In this document: one piece after another, positions 2 to 32,813 of the stretch
How the letters are laid out: every line of letters starts with the position of its first letter
Numbering within the stretch: position 1 is the first letter of the stretch
Source of the DNA: Gammaproteobacteria bacterium
Lineage (GTDB): Bacteria; Pseudomonadota; Gammaproteobacteria; Enterobacterales; Kangiellaceae
Reading direction: 5' to 3'
Assembly (NCBI GenBank): GCA_013373545.1
Contig: JABXHQ010000019.1
Location: 1-64,000 of the forward strand
Length of the DNA stretch: 64,000 nt
The notes under the pieces: model-generated
The model's database searches: none
Told to the model about the DNA's origin: nothing
Seen by the model: only the letters and a program-made list of their open reading frames with translations
Made by a program: the position numbers and the translations under genes

Positions 2-1012
2 AGATCCCATGATGTACGTTTTGCCGCGGAGACTCTAGGATTCAGTCACATACCGAGTCAAAAAGTTATTAAATCAATGTTTGGTAATGAATTGGCTGTG
101 GTCCATGATCCAAGATGGAAAGCTGGCACACCAAGAGACAGTGGTACCGGTTGGGATTTTGACGATATTCGCGATCATTATTTTCAAGAGCTGTTTAAAT
201 CCAGTGCGCTAGAGCAGCGTTATGTTGATCCTGAACGTTATATGCAGCTCTCTGAGCTAGTCAGTGGTGAAGTTGTTGCACGCGTATTTAATGAGTGGCG
301 CAGCAGTGCGAATAACTGTAGTGGCGCACTTACTTGGTTTTTTCAAGATATTAAACTTGGTGCTGGCTGGGGAATTATTGATGGCCTTGCGCAGACTAAA
401 GCTGCGTATTATTTCCTAAAAAGAGCCTGGCAACCGCTCTTTGTTGGCTTAACCAATGAAAATTTCCAAGGCGTTAATGCCGAGGTCCATAATGAACGTG
501 ATTGTGATTTTAATGGCCACTTGGACATTCGATTGATTGATCAGCATGACCAAGTTATCGCGCATGAATCCATTGCGCTTACTATCGCGAAACGGAAAAG
601 CGAGACGTTTAATTTAGATGCCGTACTCGGTCACTTTTTTGATCTTGCCTACGTTTACAAATTCGGACCCAAAAACATTAAAGCTATCGCTACTACCTTA
701 TTCGAGGATGAACAGGTGGTGGCTGACAATCATTATTTTCCCAATGAGCTGCCAGTGGCTTATTGTGATTGTGAGTTAACCATTGAAACGCACACGATTG
801 ACCCAGAAAACCTAACCATAACTCTATTATCTAATAAGTTGTTATACGGCGTGAAAGTGGAAGTGCCGGGATTTTTTCCTAGCGATAATTTCTTTACGCT
901 AACTCCAGGAATGGCAAAAACTATTTTCTTGCAGCAACAAGAAGAAGTTCCTCGTCGCAAGGGCGTGATAACTGCGCCGGCGCTCAATGAAGCCAAAAGA
1001 ATAAAATTTTAA
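2..1012 (+). CDS. Glycoside hydrolase family 2 / beta-mannosidase-like protein, C-terminal part (gene truncated by left window edge)
   Basis: Frame stays open upstream of the listed ATG (RSHDVRFAAETLGFSHIPSQKVIKS...) to the window edge; 'SGALTWFFQDIKLGAGWGIIDGLAQTKAAYYFLKRAWQP' resembles beta-mannosidase C-terminal segments. Confidence 0.65.
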   Translation, partial: RSHDVRFAAETLGFSHIPSQKVIKSMFGNELAVVHDPRWKAGTPRDSGTGWDFDDIRDHYFQELFKSSALEQRYVDPERYMQLSELVSGEVVARVFNEWRSSANNCSGALTWFFQDIKLGAGWGIIDGLAQTKAAYYFLKRAWQPLFVGLTNENFQGVNAEVHNERDCDFNGHLDIRLIDQHDQVIAHESIALTIAKRKSETFNLDAVLGHFFDLAYVYKFGPKNIKAIATTLFEDEQVVADNHYFPNELPVAYCDCELTIETHTIDPENLTITLLSNKLLYGVKVEVPGFFPSDNFFTLTPGMAKTIFLQQQEEVPRRKGVITAPALNEAKRIKF

Positions 1013-1030: not shown

Positions 1031-2815
1031 ATGGATGACAAATACTCTGTAGTTCGCAAGCCAATGTATTTTGGTAAAGATGCGCAGTTATTTGGCTGGT
1101 TTCACTATCCGAAATCGGCTGAGATGCGAGATACGGCTATCTTAATCTGCCAACCAATTGCCCTCGAATACATGAGTGCTTACCGAAGCATGCGCTATAT
1201 GGCCGAAGCGTTCGCCAAGAATGGTTATCCAACGCTAAGATTTGATTATTTAGGTACCGGTGATTCTGGCGGTTATACCGAAGACGATCGTTTAGTTGAA
1301 GATTGTGTCTTGAGCATAGAGCAAGCTGTGCAAACCTTACGCGAGCTTTCGGGATGTCAGAAAATTTGTTTAATAGGTTTAAGATTAGGCGCAAGTTTTG
1401 CCGCTTTGTACGCAAATCAGCATCAAGTCGATGAATTGATTCTTTGGGCACCGGTGGAAAGTGGTAAGCGTTATTTGCGCGAAATAAAGGCTTTACAAAT
1501 GGCGAGTGCACAGTCCAGTGCCAACTCCGATCTGCTTGAAGCCGCGGGAATGGTTTATTGGCCGAATACTCAGTCTAAACTCAAATCAATGGCATTAACG
1601 ACATTGCAGCCAAAGGCCAAAGTGGTAACCATTGTTCCGCGTGACGACTTAGCCGTTACCACAACTTTACTCGATGCATGGCAAACTCTCGAGAATGCAA
1701 CCGTTCAGCAGTTGACGCTTCCAGGCTCACAAGGAATGTTGTTGTTAGCCGAAGATACAATCGTGCCATTCGAGGCATTTCAATTGATTGTGGATGAACT
1801 GAATACACGCTGTTTACCAGCCGCAAACGATATAAACATTGCATCGAGTGAGTCGAAAATGTCAACCGCTGGCGTCGAGTATAATGCGAACTATGAATTC
1901 CAACGTTCCCATCTTGTCGCTGAAGAGTTTAGCTTTTATGACCAGTCGGAACAATGGTTTGGTGTTCTGAGCCAAGGTACCGCGAGCGCAAAAATTTGCT
2001 TAGTTATCGTCAATTCTGGTGCTATACATCGAGTCGGATCGAATCGCATGCATGTGATTATGAGCCGTGGCTATGCCGCTATGGGCTTGCCGGTATTCCG
2101 AATGGATATTCCTGGTCTTGGTGATAGTTTAACTTCTAATACTGAACTGGAAAATCAAGAGCACATTGAAGGATCGGAAGAATTTCTCGCGACCGCCATT
2201 GAGCATCTGCAGCAACGTTATGGATTTGAGAATTTCATTGTCGCGGGATTAAGCAGTGGTGCTTTTTATGCGTATAACGGACTTATTCGATTATTAGATA
2301 AGCCCATTAAAGATGCCCTCGTACTTAATCCGGAGCAATTCTATAATAGCAAGGGACGTGAAACGAATCTGGCGAAACAACAAAGCGGGTGGATGTATTA
2401 TCGTGCGCAAATTACTAACCCCGAGAAGTGGAAGAAATTCTTTTCAGGAAAAGTCAATTATCGCTACATTCTATCCATAGTGGTTAATAAATTTGTTAAT
2501 GTGTTTAATCGACATAAAAATAAGTTAAAAAAGCAATCGAATGATATTCACACCATAAAAAATGATTTGTCTCATGATCTAAATGTTATTGTAACGTTAG
2601 ATAAAAGTATTCATTTTGTACTGAGTGAGAATGACCCGGCTAATTTAATTTTGAATACTCTTGCGCCGGTAACAGTGAAGCGACTTATCAGCGAGCAAAA
2701 AATTGCTAAGACCCTAGTGCCTAATGCTGATCATACCTTTTCACGTTATCGACCGATGTTAAATATGATCGAGCAAACTAAGCAATATTTAAAACGATAC
2801 TTAATAACGGATTAA
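1031..2815 (+). CDS. Two-domain alpha/beta hydrolase; exosortase-A-associated hydrolase 2-like + hydrolase 1-like fusion
   Basis: 594 aa with two alpha/beta-hydrolase-like halves; N-half 'GLRLGAS', C-half 'GLSSGAF' and 'NADHTFSR'. Confidence 0.75.
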   Translation: MDDKYSVVRKPMYFGKDAQLFGWFHYPKSAEMRDTAILICQPIALEYMSAYRSMRYMAEAFAKNGYPTLRFDYLGTGDSGGYTEDDRLVEDCVLSIEQAVQTLRELSGCQKICLIGLRLGASFAALYANQHQVDELILWAPVESGKRYLREIKALQMASAQSSANSDLLEAAGMVYWPNTQSKLKSMALTTLQPKAKVVTIVPRDDLAVTTTLLDAWQTLENATVQQLTLPGSQGMLLLAEDTIVPFEAFQLIVDELNTRCLPAANDINIASSESKMSTAGVEYNANYEFQRSHLVAEEFSFYDQSEQWFGVLSQGTASAKICLVIVNSGAIHRVGSNRMHVIMSRGYAAMGLPVFRMDIPGLGDSLTSNTELENQEHIEGSEEFLATAIEHLQQRYGFENFIVAGLSSGAFYAYNGLIRLLDKPIKDALVLNPEQFYNSKGRETNLAKQQSGWMYYRAQITNPEKWKKFFSGKVNYRYILSIVVNKFVNVFNRHKNKLKKQSNDIHTIKNDLSHDLNVIVTLDKSIHFVLSENDPANLILNTLAPVTVKRLISEQKIAKTLVPNADHTFSRYRPMLNMIEQTKQYLKRYLITD

Positions 2816-2817
2816 CA

Positions 2818-3768
2818 ATGAATAATGGACCAATAAAAGTCGTTGTATTTGCCAACACGGGCATTGAAATTGTCAAGCCTCTTTATGACGCTGGAATTAA
2901 TATTGTAGGAGTGATTGAAAGTAAAGATCGCCATACGATTACAAATCCAATAAAGAAAATATTAACCAATATTAATCGGTTTATTACCGGTCGAGATCGT
3001 GCGCAAAGCTTACGTGAATTTGCCGATAGCAAAAAAATTCCTTATCTAACTTACAAAGATAAACAACCTGAAGATGTTGCCGATTGGATCAAGAGTCTAT
3101 CAGCCGAGTTATTGGTTTCGCATCAAGCGCCGATTCTTCCTGAAGTGGTTTTTACTGCGGCTACTTTCGGCTCGATTAATTTGCACCCTACTTTGCTGCC
3201 TAAATACCGAGGCTCAAATCCTTTCTTCTGGATGTACTACCACAAAGATATGACGGCGGGCATTACCATCCATAAAATAGACCATGATATTGATACCGGT
3301 GGGATTTTAGTACAACGATCGTGTTCCGTTGATTATGGCACGAGCGCAGAACAACTTGAGCGAGATATAGTGAAACATCTAGCGGTACCTGCACTGATTG
3401 AATTGATAACTGATTTCAATCCAAATCTTCCCACTATCGAACAGCCGGAAGACAGCCCCACTCCCTATGCAAGACGTATGGAAGACGCTGAATACCGCGA
3501 TCTAATTTTAACCAAAGGCTTTAATATTAAGCAGTTTTGGCACTTATTACACGCCAATCAGCAATGGAAAACTGCGTTAATCGGTGAGCTCTATGACAAC
3601 GCATACGATTGGCAGATCGGCCAGTACGAAACCAGTGAACATGATCACCCCTTTGGCAAGCTCATATTAGACAAGAAGAAAGTAGGCATTGCCCATCCGG
3701 AAGGTGTTGTTTGGTTTGAACGACGCTTTAATTTAAATCGCTTTATTGCCAATCGAGTATTGAATTAA
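2818..3768 (+). CDS. Formyltransferase family protein (putative sugar/amine N-formyltransferase)
   Basis: 'SINLHPTLLPKYRGSNPF...HDIDTGGIL' matches the N-x-H...D formyl-transfer core of the Fmt/PurN fold; EPS context. Confidence 0.85.
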   Translation: MNNGPIKVVVFANTGIEIVKPLYDAGINIVGVIESKDRHTITNPIKKILTNINRFITGRDRAQSLREFADSKKIPYLTYKDKQPEDVADWIKSLSAELLVSHQAPILPEVVFTAATFGSINLHPTLLPKYRGSNPFFWMYYHKDMTAGITIHKIDHDIDTGGILVQRSCSVDYGTSAEQLERDIVKHLAVPALIELITDFNPNLPTIEQPEDSPTPYARRMEDAEYRDLILTKGFNIKQFWHLLHANQQWKTALIGELYDNAYDWQIGQYETSEHDHPFGKLILDKKKVGIAHPEGVVWFERRFNLNRFIANRVLN

Positions 3769-5510
3769 TGATGAACCAAACCACGCAATTTATCTCGATT
3801 GATTGTGACGGTTATCCGCTAAATGCCGTATGGCGATTAGCAAACAGTGCCTCTATCACTAAAACGGTCTTTATAATCTGTCCAGGAATCGGTACCGATT
3901 ATAACAATGCATATCGGAATTTTCGCTACCTTGCGCGATCACTCAATCAAGCTGGTTTTGATACTTTAACGATTGACTATTTAGCGACCGGTAGCTCTAG
4001 TGATGGACCAGAAACACTCAATGTGATTGAGAAGTTCGAGTTTAGTATTACTTCTGCGGTTTCTTTTTGTCGGGCACACTATCAAAATATTTGCCTCATC
4101 GGTTTTCGTGTTGGCGCAACTTTGGCACTTAAATATGCAGCAGACTATAACCTTGATGGTGTGGTTGCCTGGTCGCCTATTCTTAAAGGTAAAAGCTTTC
4201 TTAGAGAAGTAAAATTATTAGCTGCGAGTGCTGAGTTAAATCATGAAACTAGCGAAGACCTAGAAATATCGGGTGTGATTTTAGACCCGCCTACTCAGGC
4301 ATATCTAGCACAAATTGACATTACTCAAATGACTCCTCGTGCGCGGGAAACACTTTGTGTACTCGATGCTACAAGTAAACGTTTAGAAAAAGTAATTGAC
4401 CGATGGCGTGAGTGCGATAACACAAGTGTTACGGTGCTCGAAAGCACCGAAACTCAAGATCTATTAATCGATGCACACCTAACTAAAGTAGCAAGCGCTA
4501 CTAATCAAGCTATTGTAGATACCGTTGCCACTTGGTTTGATAATAATGAAATGCATAATCAAGAGATACCGAAATTCGTATCCGAATTAGTTATTAATCA
4601 TTCGTTTATCGAAACATGCTGTTTTGATGGCGCGCGTTTTTCTGTTCGCTGTCAACCCACTGATGTATCAAAAGATAAACCAGTAATTCTGTTTTTGAGT
4701 TCAGGCTCCAATCACAATGTCGGGCCGCATCGGCTTTACGTTGAATTAAGTCGCAAATTAGCGAGCTCTGGTTTTACTAGCTATCGAGTTGACATGCCTG
4801 GTTTAGGCGAAACGCCAGCAGAAGATTTAGAGAGTGAAAACTTTTCATATATGCCAAAGCCAACGGACTTTCTTGAGCGGTTTGTAGCTGCCCACGATTT
4901 GCAGCATAGTTCGCTTATTTTAATTGGACTTTGTTCGGGAGCTTTTCATTCATTTAAGGCTGCTGCCGAAAGCGAAACGATGCCCATTAAGGCGATCATT
5001 CCTATTAACCCGCTAACATTTTATTGGCAGCAGGGTATGACGATTGATGACGCACCGAGTGTTAATTTTAGTAAGTGGAGTTGGTACCGGCAATCCATGA
5101 AGGATATTAATCGATGGAAAAAGCTTTTTTCGGGAAAAGTAGCCATAAAGCCGATAATTGCTGTCATCGCTGAGCGGATTAAGTCGCAGCTAAAGGCGCG
5201 CTCAACGAATCAACTCAGTGAGCCTGAAAATGCTAATGGAAAATTTGAAGTCAATCAAAATATTACTCGGACGTTGCATCGTATCGACGAGCTCAATCGT
5301 CCGATAAGATTTATATTTTCGGAGAATGATCCTGGGTTAGAAATATTAAAGGCGTCGAGTAAAAAGGCATTCAATCAACAAAAGAAGAAAGGGCAGATCA
5401 GTGTTTCATTTATCGCCAATGCCGATCACACCTTTTCGCGTCAAGCCGTTAGAAAGCAGTTGATCGATCAGTTGCTAGCTGAGCTTAGCGCCGTGACCGA
5501 GGGGGCGTAA
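3768..5510 (+). CDS. Two-domain alpha/beta hydrolase; paralogue of 1031..2815
   Basis: 580 aa with the same two-half architecture: 'GFRVGAT' (N-half), 'GLCSGAF' and 'NADHTFSR' (C-half). Confidence 0.75.
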   Translation: MMNQTTQFISIDCDGYPLNAVWRLANSASITKTVFIICPGIGTDYNNAYRNFRYLARSLNQAGFDTLTIDYLATGSSSDGPETLNVIEKFEFSITSAVSFCRAHYQNICLIGFRVGATLALKYAADYNLDGVVAWSPILKGKSFLREVKLLAASAELNHETSEDLEISGVILDPPTQAYLAQIDITQMTPRARETLCVLDATSKRLEKVIDRWRECDNTSVTVLESTETQDLLIDAHLTKVASATNQAIVDTVATWFDNNEMHNQEIPKFVSELVINHSFIETCCFDGARFSVRCQPTDVSKDKPVILFLSSGSNHNVGPHRLYVELSRKLASSGFTSYRVDMPGLGETPAEDLESENFSYMPKPTDFLERFVAAHDLQHSSLILIGLCSGAFHSFKAAAESETMPIKAIIPINPLTFYWQQGMTIDDAPSVNFSKWSWYRQSMKDINRWKKLFSGKVAIKPIIAVIAERIKSQLKARSTNQLSEPENANGKFEVNQNITRTLHRIDELNRPIRFIFSENDPGLEILKASSKKAFNQQKKKGQISVSFIANADHTFSRQAVRKQLIDQLLAELSAVTEGA

Positions 5511-6653
5511 ATGAAGAAATTTTTTCCACAACTAGCATGGTTGAGGGCAATAGCTGCGTTCGCAGTTGTTTTCTACCATATTCGACGCGGCGTTAATGTA
5601 AGCTATAACGGTGAAGATGCGATAGTTGACAACCTATTTTTACGTTCAATTGATCTGGGTGACTTTGGTGTATTGCTTTTCTTTGTTCTTAGCGGAACAA
5701 CACTTTACTTAAATCATCAAAGCTTTACCGCGCAGCATACGATAGGGCACTTTTTCTTAAAGCGAGTTTTTCGAATTTGGCCCGCTTTTTTTGTTTCTAT
5801 GCTCATTTCGATTGCATTTATTCCAATATTTACCCATTTCTACATTGCTGATTTGCAGGGTTACTGGATCGAAGTTCACGCTGATAATAATTATGCCTTG
5901 TCTGATGTTTTCAAATACTTAGGTTTGATTTTTAATATTACCGGACCCCATGGTAAATTTAATGTTGTGTATTGGTCGTTGCCGATTGAATTTCAATACT
6001 ATCTTTTATTTCCATTGTTAGTATTGTCAATTCGCTGGTTTAAGTATTTTGGACCTTTATTGCTAGGCGGATTATTGTATGGTTTATTGCATACGCCGGT
6101 GCGCGATCTCATCGCCAATTCGTGGACACTTATGCTGGCCTATACTTTTTGTGGTGGAGTGTTGATTGGTCACTTATACAAAACCTTTCAACACAAGATC
6201 CAACTACCCAATAGCGTTGCATTGATCTTGGTTGTGTTACTGTTCATTACCACCAGTTTAGTCAATCAGTTTTATGAAGCTTTACCAAATTGGATTCAAA
6301 ACTTGCCAATCATTGGAATTGAAATGAATATGTTTGGGGTGTTAGCCCTTGCCGTCGTGCTAATTATGATTTTTAGTGATTTTGATAACCAAGCGCAGGG
6401 ACCCGTAAAGCGTTCATTGACATTCCTTGGCGAAATTTCTTACAGCGTGTATTTGTATCACTGTATATTTATTGCTATCGGTGTTTTACTTGTCATTCAG
6501 TTTAATATTAATAACTATATTGCAAAGCTGTTTACGGTATCCAGTGTGACCTTAATTGGGACAATACTCATCTCGTACCTAAGTTATCAATATGTCGAAA
6601 AGCCGGGAATTAAGATAGGACGACGCTTAATTAAAAAAGGCCAGTCATCATGA
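5511..6653 (+). CDS. Acyltransferase family 3 membrane protein
   Basis: N-terminal 'LAWLRAIAAFAVVFYHIRRG', multi-TM, 'LGEISYSVYLYH'. Confidence 0.9.
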   Translation: MKKFFPQLAWLRAIAAFAVVFYHIRRGVNVSYNGEDAIVDNLFLRSIDLGDFGVLLFFVLSGTTLYLNHQSFTAQHTIGHFFLKRVFRIWPAFFVSMLISIAFIPIFTHFYIADLQGYWIEVHADNNYALSDVFKYLGLIFNITGPHGKFNVVYWSLPIEFQYYLLFPLLVLSIRWFKYFGPLLLGGLLYGLLHTPVRDLIANSWTLMLAYTFCGGVLIGHLYKTFQHKIQLPNSVALILVVLLFITTSLVNQFYEALPNWIQNLPIIGIEMNMFGVLALAVVLIMIFSDFDNQAQGPVKRSLTFLGEISYSVYLYHCIFIAIGVLLVIQFNINNYIAKLFTVSSVTLIGTILISYLSYQYVEKPGIKIGRRLIKKGQSS

Positions 6654-7321
6654 GAGTGATTAGTATTATATTAATATTCTTAGCGGCGAGTTGTAGTGAT
6701 ATTAGTGGTAACAATAACGAGCTTACTGACTACTATCATAAGCAATTTGCGCAGCACTTGGTCGAGCAAACTCAAATAGCCCCTAATGCTTTAGTATTGT
6801 TGGGTGACAGTTTAACGGAAGATTTGGCTGAGCAAGATTTTTTCACGCATGTGGTTAATTATGGAATACGTCAAGACACCACCTATGGTCTCTATTTGCG
6901 TGTTCAGCAATATGAACGTGTACAAGATGCTCGAGCGATTGCTTTACTCATCGGAATTAATGATTTTTGGCGTGGGCGCGATAATAAAAATATCGTGGAA
7001 AATATTGTTAAAATCATTGACCTGCTTCCTCAGGATACTCCAGTGGTTGTGTTTGGCTTGTTACCCGTAGATGAGCGCAAAGGTTGGCAAGGATGGAATC
7101 AGCGCATCAAACAGGTTAATGCAAGCATCGAAGCTCAGCTCAAAGGTCGCGGCGTGGTATTCGACAACTTGGGCGCAGAGCTTATTGATCAAAGTGGAAA
7201 TTTAGCGCCTCAATACCATGTTGGCGATGGCGTCCACCTCACGTCAGCGGCGTATAAAATATGGGCACAACGGTTGCTTCAAGCGCTTAATCAACAAGGT
7301 ATTAAAGATGGAAATTCGTAA
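6650..7321 (+). CDS. SGNH/GDSL hydrolase, putative lipoprotein
   Basis: Lipobox-like 'FLAASC'; 'LLGDSLT', 'GIND', 'DGVHLT' blocks. Confidence 0.9.
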   Translation: MRVISIILIFLAASCSDISGNNNELTDYYHKQFAQHLVEQTQIAPNALVLLGDSLTEDLAEQDFFTHVVNYGIRQDTTYGLYLRVQQYERVQDARAIALLIGINDFWRGRDNKNIVENIVKIIDLLPQDTPVVVFGLLPVDERKGWQGWNQRIKQVNASIEAQLKGRGVVFDNLGAELIDQSGNLAPQYHVGDGVHLTSAAYKIWAQRLLQALNQQGIKDGNS

Positions 7322-8357
7322 ACTCAACGCGTTACGGGGCATTGCTGCAATTATCGTGATGATCAGTCACTTTAGTAATGCAACCAACCTTTGGGGGGGG
7401 GCGCTTGGAAAAGGCGGCGGACAATTTGGCGTGATGTTGTTTTTTATTCTAAGCGGATTCTTAATGTCACTGCTGTATGCCAACAAGGCTTTTACTTTAC
7501 CTCAGGTTTATCGCTATGCCGTCGCACGCTTTGCTCGCGTAGTACCGCTTTTTTTGGTGGTTGTGTTGGTTTCATTTTTACTGATGAAGCTTAATGTGAC
7601 GGGGGTGCTTTATAACATTGACTCAACGAGTGAATTATTAGCACACTTACTAATGCTCTCTGGCGAATCAGTGCTTTGGACCATTCCGGCTGAAATTCAA
7701 TTTTATGTAATCTTTGTTGGGTTATGGTTGTTGTTTAGCCGCTCGCCGAAGCAGTTGTTGTATACCTTATTGGTTACATTTATGCTGCTATTTTATATCG
7801 GGTACGCTCGTCCCATTGGTGATGTATTTGGGATGAAAGTAGATGTGTCCATTGTTCAATCATTACCTTACTTTATCGTCGGTACGCTATTAGGCCATCT
7901 GTATCACTATATTGATCATTTTAAGCCTTACCAAAGTCATGGGGTTTTACTATTACTATTGGTGGTACCGCTGTTATTCCCACAAGTTTATCAAGCGTTA
8001 AGCCAGCAAACCCATGATTTATGGCAAGATACCGGCATCTGGCTGGTGATGACGCTGATCTTTTTTGCCATCACTTTTTTATTACCAGACTCTAATCCAG
8101 TCATGAGCAACCGAGTTGGAGATTTTCTTGGTAAAATTTCTTATTCGATGTATCTATTACATATGCCAGTGCTTTGGCAGATTGAAAAACTTGGTATTAA
8201 CTCTCATGCTCTGGCGTTTGTACTGTTTATGAGCGCAGCAATTTTTGTGGCTTGGTTGAGTTATTTGGTTATTGAAGCGCCGGCGCGGGAAGGTTTACGC
8301 CGGCTACTCGCTCCAAAGCCGAATAGCCAATCACTTGCCGGTTCAAAAGTCAGTTAA
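7308..8357 (+). CDS. Acyltransferase family 3 membrane protein
   Basis: Start moved to ATG 7308 (MEIRKLNALRGIAAIIVMISHF); 'LGKISYSMYLLH'; overlaps the SGNH stop by 14 bp. Confidence 0.9.
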   Translation: MEIRKLNALRGIAAIIVMISHFSNATNLWGGALGKGGGQFGVMLFFILSGFLMSLLYANKAFTLPQVYRYAVARFARVVPLFLVVVLVSFLLMKLNVTGVLYNIDSTSELLAHLLMLSGESVLWTIPAEIQFYVIFVGLWLLFSRSPKQLLYTLLVTFMLLFYIGYARPIGDVFGMKVDVSIVQSLPYFIVGTLLGHLYHYIDHFKPYQSHGVLLLLLVVPLLFPQVYQALSQQTHDLWQDTGIWLVMTLIFFAITFLLPDSNPVMSNRVGDFLGKISYSMYLLHMPVLWQIEKLGINSHALAFVLFMSAAIFVAWLSYLVIEAPAREGLRRLLAPKPNSQSLAGSKVS

Positions 8358-9118
8358 CCTTCCGGTATTGGGTCTTTTTTGATTTGGAAGACGAAAATAA
8401 AGCGATGAGTTTTTCCCTTTACCTGGCTATCCCAAATATCCACTTTAAGTGGATCATCTGGGTTGGCCAGAATGTTACTGCTACTGACCATTTCAAATCC
8501 ATTATCCACAAACTGCTGCTCAACGTATTTTGCGTCAATTCGATGTAACTTGCCGGTTAGGTAGTGCTCGCTACCTGCCGGAGCTGCATGATCAATGACG
8601 ACGACTTTACCATCGGGTTTCAAATTTACTTTTAGTTGATTAAAAAAATTGCTTCTCAGCGCGCGATCGTGCAAAGAGTCGAGCTGTAAGTACAAGTCAT
8701 GGAATACTTGCGATAAGAAAATGAGATCAACCGGTTCGGGCAAATTGAAGTCATTGGTGTTGCCGGTAACAAGTTGCACATTCGCAAGGCGGTGATTATC
8801 CATGCGCTGATCAAGGGCTTCGCTATGTTTATCGATATAGGATGGGAAGTTATGTAAATAAACTTTACCTTCCGGAGCAACCAGATAGTTAAATAATTCG
8901 GCATAGTAGCCATCGCCACCTTTAATGTCGGCTATTGTCATTCCTGGCTTTATGGCTAAATAACGCAGCACCGCCGCGGGTTGCCGTTTTGCGTCTTGCT
9001 TGGTGTCTTGACTGGGGCGCTGTGGATTGAATACGGCTGCTTCGTACTGATCGGCTGGCTCGGGGCTAGAGCAAGCTCCTAGCAGCAATAGACTTGAGAT
9101 CATGAATGTGCGTAGCAT
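8354..9118 (-). CDS. Class I SAM-dependent methyltransferase-like lipoprotein
   Basis: Lipobox 'LLLGACSS'; 'IKPGMTIADIKGGDGYYAELF' SAM-binding-like motif. Confidence 0.75.
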   Translation of the reverse strand: MLRTFMISSLLLLGACSSPEPADQYEAAVFNPQRPSQDTKQDAKRQPAAVLRYLAIKPGMTIADIKGGDGYYAELFNYLVAPEGKVYLHNFPSYIDKHSEALDQRMDNHRLANVQLVTGNTNDFNLPEPVDLIFLSQVFHDLYLQLDSLHDRALRSNFFNQLKVNLKPDGKVVVIDHAAPAGSEHYLTGKLHRIDAKYVEQQFVDNGFEMVSSSNILANPDDPLKVDIWDSQVKGKTHRFIFVFQIKKDPIPEG

Positions 9119-9297
9119 AACGTTGGCCTCTCATATTTCGCATTTATCCTTAGCTTAATACGGGCGCGTAATCTAATGCAATTCGCAAAGGATAAACTGC
9201 TATAATCAGCTGGGTGAGAGGTGAGCGTTAAATGACTATACATTTACGGACGCTTACCTTAAAATTAAGTAATGAGATATTATCAAGGACGATATCG

Positions 9298-17768: not shown

Positions 17769-18629
17769 TCACATCTTCCATATTTGGCTAAGATCTCGAC
17801 CAATCATTTTACCCGTGCGCTCAATAATATCACAATAGTAGTCATGGTTTTGACGAGCGACCTCATCGCGATACTGATCCTGTGATTTTGGATCAACTTC
17901 CTTGATAGCGACATTACGCAGCTTTGTTTTTAAACCTTTGGGAATAATTCTTGAAAGAATATCCCATGCTTTTGAGTAAGACAACTTATGCAGGATCCCT
18001 TTGCCAGTTGCTGACATCACTTTCTCTGGGCGTGCATTTAATTGATCCTTAACCACAGAAAAGTCAAAGTCTTCACTTACACCGAGAAACTTAAACACTT
18101 TCAATAACTCTTGTTCAGGTTGGCTGATAAGCTCTTCAAAAAGTAATATATGAATATTCTCAGCACCGAACAGTTCTTGATAAGGTTTAATTTGCATCGG
18201 GTAATCTGAGAAGCTGAGATAACCCGGAAATGAGTTGACTGCATCTAGCATATTCTTGGTTTGCCCATCAGTCACCTGCGGCCGGCGTGTATGCCAATAG
18301 TGGCTAACGGTGCGTTTGAGCGGATGACGCATTACATAAATGATTTTTGCATCAGGTGAAAACGCCTTTAAGCGCTGCGCAACATTACTATATTGTGGAA
18401 TTTTTGCATAATCGGTTGAGCCTTCACCGCGATATTGGTGCGCTTCAGTCGCACCATCAAATAAACTCATGTACTCATTAAACTCTTGCTCGGAATAACT
18501 ATCGGTCTTGAACAAGCCGGGCTCTTTAGGTTCACTCATAAAGAGCGCAGGATGAAAGCTAAGGTAGTGATGTAAAGAAGTCGTTCCTGACTTCATTGCG
18601 CCAATAATAAATAAATTGGGCTTGTTCAT
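17769..18629 (-). CDS. Sulfotransferase
   Basis: 'FIIGAMKSGTTSLHHYLSFHP' PAPS-binding loop; 'KIIYVMRHPLKRTVSHYWH'. Confidence 0.9.
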   Translation of the reverse strand: MNKPNLFIIGAMKSGTTSLHHYLSFHPALFMSEPKEPGLFKTDSYSEQEFNEYMSLFDGATEAHQYRGEGSTDYAKIPQYSNVAQRLKAFSPDAKIIYVMRHPLKRTVSHYWHTRRPQVTDGQTKNMLDAVNSFPGYLSFSDYPMQIKPYQELFGAENIHILLFEELISQPEQELLKVFKFLGVSEDFDFSVVKDQLNARPEKVMSATGKGILHKLSYSKAWDILSRIIPKGLKTKLRNVAIKEVDPKSQDQYRDEVARQNHDYYCDIIERTGKMIGRDLSQIWKM

Positions 18630-21452: not shown

Positions 21453-22262
21453 TTACTCGCTATCGGGAAAAGACTGCGTGGCTAATATTTCTAGTTCAGC
21501 ATAAACATTAGCACATAACTCCTCAATTTCTGGATGTAAGGCGAAATCCTTTTTCTTGCTTTTAGGGTTGGTATGAATCTCACTGATGTCCAGAGAAGAT
21601 TGATCGAATCCAATGAAAGTGAAAATCTTCTTAAACATAGATTGTGGATTCTGGGTTAAGCTTTCATATTTGAAACACTTAAAGCGACTGAAATCTAAGG
21701 GTTTATGAACAACTAGTTTATTGCGCAAATACCAAAATAATGCGGCGGCATCTAGATCACTAATATCTTGCTTTAGATAGTGAGCGACTAAACGACGGTC
21801 TTCTTCTGAAACTAACTCATTGCGCCAGTCAGTTGGATGATTGTCAACAATAAAGCTCAGGTCACGCTTACCATTATTATTGCCAAATTTGCGGATGTTC
21901 GACATAGCGACCGTTTTGTAGTGCCGATATGGCCATAAGATTTTTACGCGCTTATCAAGGTCTAAATAATGTTGAAATTTTTGACTGTCGAGCAATGGCT
22001 TTGCGACCACTAGTGGTGCTTTAGAGCTATCAAAAATTTTAAAAGCCTTTTGGTCGTTCAATAAACGCATATCATCGAAAGCTTCGCTGAGCTCTCGAAA
22101 TACCGCGGTTTGTTTATGCCAATCAAAGGTTCTCATTAGCATACTGGTACCCGAACGCTGACATCCCATAATCAACAAAATGGTACGCGGTGTTTTCGGC
22201 AACAAGCTGAATTTTAAATGCTTTAGCTTTCGATGAGACCAAAAGCGAAGTTTGTTAAACAC
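21453..22262 (-). CDS. Sulfotransferase-like protein
   Basis: 'ILLIMGCQRSGTSMLMRTF' P-loop; proposed GTG start at 22262 gives an 8-bp overlap with the upstream GT4 stop (listed ORF begins at 22340). Confidence 0.8.
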   Translation of the reverse strand: MFNKLRFWSHRKLKHLKFSLLPKTPRTILLIMGCQRSGTSMLMRTFDWHKQTAVFRELSEAFDDMRLLNDQKAFKIFDSSKAPLVVAKPLLDSQKFQHYLDLDKRVKILWPYRHYKTVAMSNIRKFGNNNGKRDLSFIVDNHPTDWRNELVSEEDRRLVAHYLKQDISDLDAAALFWYLRNKLVVHKPLDFSRFKCFKYESLTQNPQSMFKKIFTFIGFDQSSLDISEIHTNPKSKKKDFALHPEIEELCANVYAELEILATQSFPDSE

Positions 22263-23385
22263 GTGAGTTACCCTTATGGTTAAATTCTTTTTTTGCGAGT
22301 GAATGGAATAAGTCGAAGTAGCGACCGGCTGATGTTTCAATACTGAAATTAGATTTTACATACTGCCATGCCTGTTCAATCATGGTTTGCTGCGCTTCGG
22401 TATTCAGAACTTGCGTAATGGCTTGTGCAATCGCCTTAGAGTTCTCATTTTCGATTAAAATACCGGTAACTCCAGGTTCAATGATTTCTTCAGGTCCGCC
22501 ACAGCGCGTACACACAACAGGAACTTTGGCAGCCATTGCTTCGATGGTCGACAATGAAAATCCCTCGTCGCGTGAGGATAGCAAATACATATCTGCCGCT
22601 TTTAGGAAGCTGGCGACGTTGTCCACGAAACCTATGAACTTAACCTTAGTACCAACAATGTTTGGCTCGGCCGATTGCCGATAAGTTTGCAGTTGCTCTT
22701 CACTGTATTCGCCAGCAATTAAAAAGGTTATATCATCGGGTACTTGACTGGCGGCTTGTACTACAAGGTCATATCCTTTGGAATGATTAGCATTCCCAAT
22801 CATTGCAACCAGTTTATGCTCAGCAGGAATATTAAACTGTTGACGCAGATTGCTGGCCAGGGCTTCATCGAAGCGTTCGATAGCAAGACCGTTATAAATG
22901 ATTTCACACTTACTTTCTGGCGCATGTAAGCGACTATTCAGTTGTTGCTTTAGATAATTAGAAACAAACACGAGTTTGGTTGAAAAGCGGCGCACGAGCC
23001 AAGCTTTGATTGCTAACAGTCGTTCATCCGGCGCAATATCGATAATGCCATGAAAAGTTGAAATTAAGGGCGTTCTCGTGAGGGCCGCAGCAATCGCACA
23101 ATAAATGCTACTGCCAAACAGGTGTGCATTGATGATCGCCACTTGATGTTGCTTAATCAATTGGGTGAGCTTTTTGATTAAGGGACGGTTAAACGAACCT
23201 GACATGGGTTGGAAAATAGGTTGAATGTCGAGCCGGCGCAACTGATCCGCGAGCCAACCGGGACCTGGTAGCAGAACGATTGGAGTGAACTCACTACGAT
23301 CGAGCTCAGCAATCAAGTTAACGAAAACTGTCTCGGCGCCGCCGGAGCCAGCGACATCTGTTACGAATAGTACAACCTTTGGCAT
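22255..23385 (-). CDS. Glycosyltransferase family 4
   Basis: 'GSGGAETVFVNLI', 'SSRDEGFSLSTIEAMAAKVPVVCT'. Confidence 0.92.
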   Translation of the reverse strand: MPKVVLFVTDVAGSGGAETVFVNLIAELDRSEFTPIVLLPGPGWLADQLRRLDIQPIFQPMSGSFNRPLIKKLTQLIKQHQVAIINAHLFGSSIYCAIAAALTRTPLISTFHGIIDIAPDERLLAIKAWLVRRFSTKLVFVSNYLKQQLNSRLHAPESKCEIIYNGLAIERFDEALASNLRQQFNIPAEHKLVAMIGNANHSKGYDLVVQAASQVPDDITFLIAGEYSEEQLQTYRQSAEPNIVGTKVKFIGFVDNVASFLKAADMYLLSSRDEGFSLSTIEAMAAKVPVVCTRCGGPEEIIEPGVTGILIENENSKAIAQAITQVLNTEAQQTMIEQAWQYVKSNFSIETSAGRYFDLFHSLAKKEFNHKGNSRV

Positions 23386-32374: not shown

Positions 32375-32635
32375 TTATGAGTTTTGCTGCTGGATGACAA
32401 AGTCAACCAAGCTACCGATAGTTTCAAAGACTTCTGCCGTTAAATCATCATCTTGCGCCATAAACTCAAAGGTTTCCTCTAACGAGGTGATCACAGATAC
32501 AATCGCCATTGAGTCGAATTCAGGAAAGTTGCCCAGCAACGGGGTCTCTTCATTCAGCTCGGCGGGCGAGAGGTTCAGTGACAGAGTGTCAACCAATAAA
32601 GTCTTTACAGATTCGGTAATGTCGGCGCGATTCAT
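32375..32635 (-). CDS. Acyl carrier protein (XrtA-type)
   Basis: 86 aa from MNRADITES...; phosphopantetheine site 'EFDSMAIVSVI'. Confidence 0.88.
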   Translation of the reverse strand: MNRADITESVKTLLVDTLSLNLSPAELNEETPLLGNFPEFDSMAIVSVITSLEETFEFMAQDDDLTAEVFETIGSLVDFVIQQQNS

Positions 32636-32813
32636 AATGGTAACTTCGGTGAAAATTGGCGCGATTCTATCAGTAAATTCCGAATTTTGCACTGATCGAA
32701 GTATTTTCTATAACGAAATAACCTTAAGTTGGGATTAAATGATGGCAAACTGCGGCTATTTTTCATAAGCTAGCCGCTTAGTTGTCGAACAATATTAAAG
32801 GGACTGGAAACTC

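What the first reader, a model, noticed from the sequence alone, without database searches (positions are those of the whole stretch)
1031..5510. Duplicated hydrolase2-hydrolase1 fusion proteins flanking a formyltransferase
Seen: two ~590-aa paralogues, each with two alpha/beta-hydrolase halves, bracket a formyltransferase with near-contiguous stops and starts. In both, the N-half nucleophile elbow reads GLRLG/GFRVG (Arg where Ser is expected) and the C-half reads GLSSG/GLCSG (Ser in one, Cys in the other), with a conserved NADHTFSR. Known: XrtA-type EPS loci usually carry separate 'hydrolase 1' and 'hydrolase 2' genes of unknown substrate. Inference: this locus has fused the pair and duplicated the fusion, suggesting the two hydrolases act as one unit with a structural N-half, and that the paralogues may act on different substrates.
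Basis: partly seen in the sequence, partly recalled or inferred. Interest (0 to 1): 0.68.

Follow-up and report, generated by a model that had tools for sequence, protein, structure and literature searches.

The report
Fused hydrolase pair in amino-acid-carrier operons
The two big proteins are real fusions of two linked enzymes, and that fusion turns out to be a widespread, near-constant companion of genes that load an amino acid onto a small carrier protein next to sugar-coat genes, which suggests that it passes the cargo on to a surface sugar.

Summary
Two tandem alpha/beta-hydrolase proteins (594 and 580 aa, 30% identical) bracket a formyltransferase in one tight operon. In both, the N-half is TIGR03101-like and the C-half TIGR03100-like, all below the curated cut-offs.

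The interpretation needs correcting. The fusion is old and widespread (73 full-length relatives from many phyla), not made at this locus. Arg at the N-half elbow and Cys, not Ser, at the C-half elbow are the rule throughout the family, split pairs included. The real oddity is Ser408 in the first paralogue (Cys in 74 of 75 aligned proteins; Ser also in its two orthologues).

Context gives the role. The adjoining contig overlaps the window by 141 bp and carries carrier protein, acyl-CoA-dehydrogenase-like enzyme, amino acid:[carrier protein] ligase, DUF1839 and GH2 genes. In 399 genomes, every genome with this ligase clade (16/16) has the fused hydrolase; none with the other clade (0/12) does. 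Split pairs sit beside other carrier-charging enzymes (TIGR03098 ligase, NRPS modules).

Best reading: a Cys-dependent, carrier-protein-linked acyltransferase decorating exopolysaccharide, with a non-catalytic N-half. That this ligase system modifies a surface sugar was predicted in 2010; the hydrolase pair was not named there. Activity is untested.

The parts
2..1012 (+). 3' part of the GH2 beta-mannosidase-like gene; its 5' part is on contig C79, which overlaps the window start by an exact 141 bp
   Evidence: tblastn 51% to the GH2 of G003; contig overlap; GH2 family by PDB sequence search
1031..2815 (+). fused hydrolase2-hydrolase1 protein, paralogue A (594 aa)
   Evidence: model pLDDT 90.3, pTM 0.91
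1376..1390 (+). N-half elbow GLRLG of paralogue A, Arg118 at the nucleophile position (between strand 111-117 and helix 119-130)
   Evidence: Arg in 70 of 75 fused proteins; strand and helix
2246..2260 (+). C-half elbow GLSSG of paralogue A, Ser408 (codon AGC at 2252-2254) where 74 of 75 aligned proteins have Cys
   Evidence: Ser also in the two orthologues
2726..2740 (+). ADHTF motif of paralogue A with the expected catalytic His568
   Evidence: His in 74 of 74 proteins with the column filled
2818..3768 (+). formyltransferase of the Fmt / sugar N-formyltransferase / LgrA fold; among the neighbourhoods examined, only in genomes with both hydrolase paralogues
   Evidence: found between the L037 and L038 pairs, absent from the other 100 loci
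3768..5510 (+). fused hydrolase2-hydrolase1 protein, paralogue B (580 aa)
4101..4115 (+). N-half elbow GFRVG of paralogue B, Arg114
4926..4940 (+). C-half elbow GLCSG of paralogue B, Cys389 (codon TGT at 4932-4934), the family norm
5421..5435 (+). ADHTF motif of paralogue B with the expected catalytic His554
5511..6653 (+). Acyl_transf_3 membrane acyltransferase, next gene of the operon
   Evidence: PF01757, 99 bits; conserved order in G002 and G003
6650..7321 (+). GDSL/SGNH hydrolase, next gene of the operon
   Evidence: PF13472, 61 bits; conserved in G002 and G003
7281..8357 (+). second Acyl_transf_3 acyltransferase (ORF can start at 7218)
   Evidence: PF01757, 107 bits

Best explanation
The fused proteins are the last enzyme of a six-gene module: carrier protein, acyl-CoA-dehydrogenase-like flavoenzyme, amino acid:[carrier protein] ligase, DUF1839, GH2 and hydrolase2-hydrolase1. 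Shown: the gene module, its conservation, the co-occurrence with one ligase clade, the conserved Cys/Ser-Asp-His set in the C-half and its absence in the N-half, and predicted rigid packing of the two halves. Inferred: the ligase loads an amino acid on the carrier protein, the flavoenzyme modifies it, and the C-half takes the (amino)acyl group from the phosphopantetheine arm onto its Cys and passes it to an amine or hydroxyl of an exopolysaccharide precursor. The N-half, with Arg at the elbow, is a non-catalytic partner that probably holds the carrier arm or shapes the acceptor site. In this genus the fusion was duplicated and a formyltransferase joined it; paralogue A changed Cys to Ser and may handle a second acyl form (for example an N-formylated one) or a second acceptor.
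For: Own genome: ligase 92% identical to the G003 ligase at C79:2595-3521, with carrier protein, flavoenzyme, DUF1839 and GH2, and C79 overlaps the window start by 141 bp. The ligase is over its NCBIfam cut-off (439 vs 357 bits) and so is the carrier protein of G003, 97% identical to the own one (109 vs 72 bits); the nearest solved structure is the B. japonicum ligase Bll0957. In 399 Pseudomonadota genomes, 16 of 17 with the fused protein have the ligase (Fisher p 3e-20), all of one ligase group (283 bits or more), while the 12 genomes with the other group (250.5 bits or less) lack it; their neighbourhoods also lack DUF1839 and GH2. The seventeenth has an amino acid adenylation ligase and a carrier protein. 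The contrast holds even inside one genus, g126. Of 101 neighbourhoods, 40 have the ligase, 20 an AMP-forming ligase with a carrier protein, 5 NRPS condensation plus adenylation domains; of 15 genomes without the ligase nearby, 12 have it elsewhere. In split form hydrolase 2 follows the carrier domain of NRPS modules in one chain (C-A-T-hydr2), the usual thioesterase place. Cys408 74/75, His568 74/74, Asp/Glu535 71/74, Arg118 70/75. Prior prediction that this ligase system joins an amino acid to a cell-surface sugar: PMC2922099.
Against: No activity, substrate or acceptor has been shown. DUF1839, a papain-like Cys protein (PMC10318531), sits in the same module, and an uncharacterised linked ORF was proposed in 2010 to be the amide-forming enzyme; if that is DUF1839, the hydrolase pair must do another step here. 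Ligase, flavoenzyme and carrier protein occur without the hydrolase pair in the other clade, so the pair is not needed for carrier charging itself. 19 of 101 neighbourhoods show no carrier or charging enzyme. The 80 scanned loci were chosen by similarity to the query. Foldseek finds only generic esterases and lipases. The coordinates of the models were not available, so triad geometry was not measured.
Confidence: 0.52

Rival explanations
1. Proofreading thioesterase: the pair hydrolyses wrongly charged or stalled acyl-carrier protein (a type II thioesterase role), and DUF1839 is the transferase that makes the amide or ester bond.
For: Hydrolase-type catalytic set; an uncharacterised linked ORF proposed as the amide-forming ligase (PMC2922099); DUF1839 is papain-like with a catalytic Cys (PMC10318531) and is present in all 15 other genomes with this ligase clade.
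Against: In the AMP-ligase and NRPS settings DUF1839 is nearly always absent (present in 1 of 20 and 0 of 5) while the pair is present, so there the pair is the only conserved candidate for the transfer. Editing enzymes are usually optional, but the pair is present in 16 of 16 genomes of this ligase clade.
Confidence: 0.22
2. Exopolysaccharide esterase or deacylase that trims or remodels acyl groups on the finished or lipid-linked polymer, unrelated to the carrier protein except by sharing the pathway.
For: Model resembles feruloyl esterases and lipases; acyltransferase-3 and GDSL genes follow in the operon.
Against: Association is with carrier-protein-charging enzymes of three unrelated kinds, including fusion of hydrolase 2 directly behind a carrier domain. 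The Cys nucleophile is unusual for an esterase.
Confidence: 0.12
3. Division of labour between the paralogues (compatible with the main reading): B (Cys389) is the transferase and A (Ser408) is a true hydrolase that sets the degree of substitution or edits the carrier.
For: Cys to Ser change only in the A orthologues of three species; A and B form separate well-supported clades each holding all three species.
Against: Ser is also used by many acyltransferases of this fold, and nothing measured separates the two activities.
Confidence: 0.3
4. The formyltransferase acts on a nucleotide sugar, as sugar N-formyltransferases do, and its place between the paralogues has nothing to do with carrier-bound amino acids.
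For: Among its closest PDB sequence matches is a GDP-4-amino-4,6-dideoxymannose formyltransferase.
Against: Fmt and the LgrA formylation domain, which act on charged amino acids, score in the same range; it occurs only with the duplicated pair in this genus.
Confidence: 0.45

Closest known systems
TIGR03101 / TIGR03100 hydrolase 2 and hydrolase 1, exosortase A system-associated
   Same: Domain order and homology of both halves (all 75 fused proteins match both models); Arg and Cys elbows as in members over the cut-offs.
   Different: Below both cut-offs; one polypeptide instead of two; no exosortase found in the genome; [quoted passage not shown]
Amino acid:[carrier protein] ligase system (B. 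japonicum Bll0957 and relatives)
   Same: Ligase and carrier protein families over their cut-offs, with the flavoenzyme gene beside them.
   Different: The clade with 39-41% identity to the query ligase shows only ligase, flavoenzyme and, in 10 of 12, carrier protein; the clade described here adds DUF1839, GH2 and the fused hydrolase.
Cell-surface sugar aminoacylation predicted in PMC2922099 (2010, note added in proof)
   Same: Ligase, carrier protein, redox enzyme, conserved uncharacterised protein, glycosidase and glycan genes; predicted target is a surface sugar.
   Different: The tandem hydrolase is not mentioned in that note, nor the link to the XrtA hydrolase pair.
D-alanylation of teichoic acids (DltA-DltC-DltB-DltD), from general knowledge
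   Same: Works alike in outline: amino acid on a small carrier protein, then on a surface polymer; in L094 and L172 the charging enzyme resembles DltA.
   Different: No DltB-type gene was identified here; the proposed transfer enzyme is an alpha/beta hydrolase pair.
Cys-nucleophile alpha/beta hydrolases that transfer acyl groups (PHA synthase GxCxG, Cys thioesterases of NRPS), from general knowledge
   Same: GxCxG elbow with Asp and His; one fused member weakly matches class III PhaC.
   Different: No close homology; paired with a pseudo-hydrolase half.

Membership tests
TIGR03101 hydrolase 2 (N-half) | score over curated cut-off 202.75 | tested here: not met
   86.5 and 64.2 bits over the first 150-160 residues
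TIGR03101 hydrolase 2 (N-half) | Arg at the elbow, as in members over the cut-off | tested here: met
   Arg118 / Arg114; split members all Arg
TIGR03100 hydrolase 1 (C-half) | score over curated cut-off 168.45 | tested here: not met
   152.6 and 114 bits; best E among 75 fused proteins is that of P0001 itself
TIGR03100 hydrolase 1 (C-half) | Cys-Asp-His catalytic set | tested here: met
   met in paralogue B (Cys389, Asp521, His554); paralogue A has Ser408, Asp535, His568
XrtA/PEP-CTERM system | exosortase gene in the genome | tested here: not met
   no TIGR02602 match in a genome 99% complete
XrtA-type exopolysaccharide locus | export, chain-length, deacetylase and FemAB genes over cut-off | tested here: met
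   TIGR03027, 03007, 03006, 03019 over cut-off; TIGR03018, 03097, 03108 below
Amino acid:[carrier protein] ligase module | ligase NF005479 and carrier protein NF005480 over cut-off in the operon | tested here: met
   ligase of own genome 439 vs 357 bits; carrier protein of G003, 97% identical to own, 109 vs 72 bits
Amino acid:[carrier protein] ligase module | loading of an amino acid on the carrier protein | not testable with these tools
   needs biochemistry
Carrier-protein-dependent acyltransferase | acyl transfer from carrier protein through the Cys | not testable with these tools
   needs biochemistry
Type II thioesterase | hydrolysis of acyl-carrier protein | not testable with these tools
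   needs biochemistry

The most novel reading that the evidence does not exclude
Hydrolase 2 and hydrolase 1 form a previously unrecognised kind of two-domain carrier-protein acyltransferase: a Cys-Asp-His hydrolase half coupled to an Arg-elbow pseudo-hydrolase half. It is shared by three carrier-charging systems (amino acid:[carrier protein] ligase, XrtA acyl-CoA-type ligase, NRPS modules) and puts amino acids or derivatives on surface polysaccharides. It would give both the XrtA hydrolase pair and one clade of amino acid:[carrier protein] ligases their function.
Probability: 0.4. Interest if true: 0.75.

Novelty: new variant of a known kind. Interest (0 to 1): 0.58.

Why it matters
What amino acid:[carrier protein] ligases are for was described as unknown in 2022 (PMC9437257), and the hydrolase 1 / hydrolase 2 pair of XrtA loci is annotated without a substrate. 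The two puzzles meet here: the fused pair follows one ligase clade in 16 of 16 genomes and is absent in 12 of 12 genomes of the other. That turns both into one testable question, with a purified carrier protein, one ligase and one fused enzyme. It would also explain an alpha/beta-hydrolase half whose elbow residue is Arg across the family.

Tried and rejected
The first scan of genome contigs with the single protein found no relative because its peptide patterns were too specific; the alignment scan worked. Rejected: that the fusion is special to this locus; that Ser is the ancestral elbow residue; that the Cys in paralogue B marks a specialised enzyme (it is the norm); that the N-half keeps a canonical triad (no conserved His after strand 8, though His25, Cys40, Asp72 and Ser79 are conserved there and unexplained); that the locus depends on an exosortase in this genome. 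Structure search did not point to any acyltransferase or esterase in particular. Papers on floc formation and on the PEP-CTERM system held nothing on the pair, and a full-text search for carrier protein ligase together with exopolysaccharide found none.
Full report
What was checked. The three reading frames lie exactly as described, 1031-2815, 2818-3768 and 3768-5510 on the + strand, with a gap of 2 bp and an overlap of 1 bp; the genes after them run on in the same way to 8357. The two large proteins are paralogues over their whole length, 30% identical. Their N-halves match hydrolase 2 (TIGR03101) and their C-halves hydrolase 1 (TIGR03100), below the curated cut-offs. The middle protein is a formyltransferase.

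The fusion is not local. Within the family of this genome, full-length fused proteins are in three other species of the genus and in three genomes of another genus; two species of the genus hold both paralogues with the formyltransferase between them. The locus of the third species is on a contig of the same length as one of Pleionea sediminis, so the window very probably belongs to the GTDB genus that holds that species. A scan of one genome per species gave 80 loci, of which 73 encode a single fused frame of 535 to 678 aa, from Pseudomonadota, Myxococcota, Gemmatimonadota, Verrucomicrobiota, Planctomycetota, Acidobacteriota and Actinomycetota by their titles; plasmids of Rhizobium, Azospirillum, Cupriavidus and Burkholderia hold it too. 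Trees of each half keep the fused proteins apart from the split pairs (one change on the N-half tree, two on the C-half tree); the exception, L167, is a second fusion nested among canonical XrtA-type split pairs with support 100. Several deep branches of the trees are weak.

The elbows. In 75 aligned fused proteins the N-half elbow residue is Arg in 70 and the C-half one is Cys in 74; the single Ser is paralogue A of the window, and its orthologues in the two sister species also have Ser. In the split pairs, including those over the TIGR cut-offs, hydrolase 2 has Arg and hydrolase 1 has Cys throughout. So Arg is a trait of hydrolase 2 as such, Cys of hydrolase 1, and the unusual step is Cys to Ser in paralogue A. 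The C-half keeps His in all and Asp or Glu in 71 of 74; the N-half has no conserved His in its last third. The model of paralogue A has mean pLDDT 90.3 and pTM 0.91, with Arg118 and Ser408 each between a strand and a helix as in a nucleophile elbow.

The neighbours. In the sister species the genes before the first hydrolase are a carrier protein, an acyl-CoA-dehydrogenase-like protein, an amino acid:[carrier protein] ligase, DUF1839 and a GH2 protein. The window begins inside that GH2 gene. The same genes of the window's genome are on contig C79, whose end overlaps the window start by 141 identical bases, so they very probably form one run with the hydrolases. Among 101 neighbourhoods from the scan and the phylum survey, 40 have the ligase, 6 more the rest of the module, 20 an AMP-forming ligase with a carrier protein, 5 NRPS condensation and adenylation domains, 4 a carrier protein only; 19 show none of the markers. 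Of 15 genomes lacking the ligase nearby, 12 have it elsewhere in the genome.

The control. In 399 genomes of the phylum, 28 have the ligase and 17 the fused hydrolase; 16 have both. The 28 ligases fall in two score groups without overlap: 283 bits or more, all with the fused hydrolase; 250.5 bits or less, none with it. The second group's neighbourhoods have ligase and flavoenzyme, mostly with the carrier protein, but no DUF1839, GH2 or hydrolase; the genomes of the first group have DUF1839 and GH2 beside the ligase (for 13 of them, for G100 and G306, for the window's own). The two groups occur side by side in family f54 and genus g126, and the hydrolase follows the ligase type, not the kinship. 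The one fused hydrolase without the ligase, in G375, has an amino acid adenylation enzyme and a carrier protein directly before it, as has L094 from Burkholderia, so the charging enzyme has been exchanged while carrier and hydrolase stayed.

Split pairs in the same setting. In genomes of the window's own family, hydrolase 2 forms the C-terminal part of a condensation-adenylation-carrier chain, followed by the hydrolase 1 gene. In canonical XrtA loci a small carrier protein gene directly precedes hydrolase 2 and the TIGR03098 ligase stands next to it. Carrier protein, charging enzyme and hydrolase pair are thus the common core; the other genes vary.

What it probably does. A Cys-Asp-His hydrolase that keeps company with carrier proteins of several kinds, in polysaccharide loci, most simply takes the acyl group from the carrier and hands it to a sugar (inference, about even odds). 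A thioesterase that edits the carrier is the strongest rival; DUF1839 may make the bond instead where it is present. The formyltransferase may act on the aminoacyl group or on a sugar; its matches do not decide. Which of the two paralogues does what is open.

What was known. A 2010 note in proof already predicted, from gene neighbourhoods, that this ligase system joins an amino acid to a cell-surface sugar, with the linked uncharacterised protein as ligase (PMC2922099); DUF1839 was later placed in the papain-like fold and linked to glycans (PMC10318531). [quoted passage not shown] I found no paper in the held library that names the hydrolase pair as part of it, but most subscription papers, including the 2010 PNAS paper on the ligase, are not held.

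Limits. The 80 scanned loci were picked by similarity to the query, so their proportions are not survey frequencies; the 399-genome comparison is the less biased one. Genomes of one family are not independent. All function is inferred.

Noticed in passing
window 32378-32653, - strand: A second small carrier protein, of the type that precedes hydrolase 2 in canonical XrtA loci (TPLLGNFPEFDSMA), lies beside the export gene of the same locus, although this genome shows no split hydrolase pair; its partner is not clear.
   Followed up: partly
whole genome of the window (G000): No exosortase (TIGR02602) was found in a genome rated 99% complete although four XrtA-type exopolysaccharide genes score over their cut-offs.
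   Followed up: partly
window 17769-18629 and 21453-22340, - strand: Two proteins that look like sulfotransferases by eye (not checked against a library), hinting at a sulphated polysaccharide.
   Followed up: no
L039 (G022:C2:49000-68900): One locus carries the fused hydrolase with carrier protein, flavoenzyme, DUF1839 and GH2 but no ligase, and about 6 kb on an NRPS-like gene with a split hydrolase 2 / hydrolase 1 pair.
   Followed up: partly
L167 (G182:C5:651000-667000), 7384-9243: Independent fusion of hydrolase 2 and hydrolase 1 within the canonical XrtA-type lineage.
   Followed up: partly
N-half of the fused family, P0001 residues 25, 40, 72, 79, 150, 151 (window 1031-2815): His25, Cys40, Asp72, Ser79 and Arg150-Glu151 are nearly invariant in the N-half of fused proteins; Cys40 is also kept in the NRPS-linked split forms but mostly not in canonical XrtA ones. 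Role unknown.
   Followed up: partly
L175 and L176 (G100, G306): The fused hydrolase lies in an open frame of about 1,110 codons with some 540 codons ahead of it, and its N-half elbow is GQGLG instead of GxRxG; not examined whether the extra part is coding.
   Followed up: no
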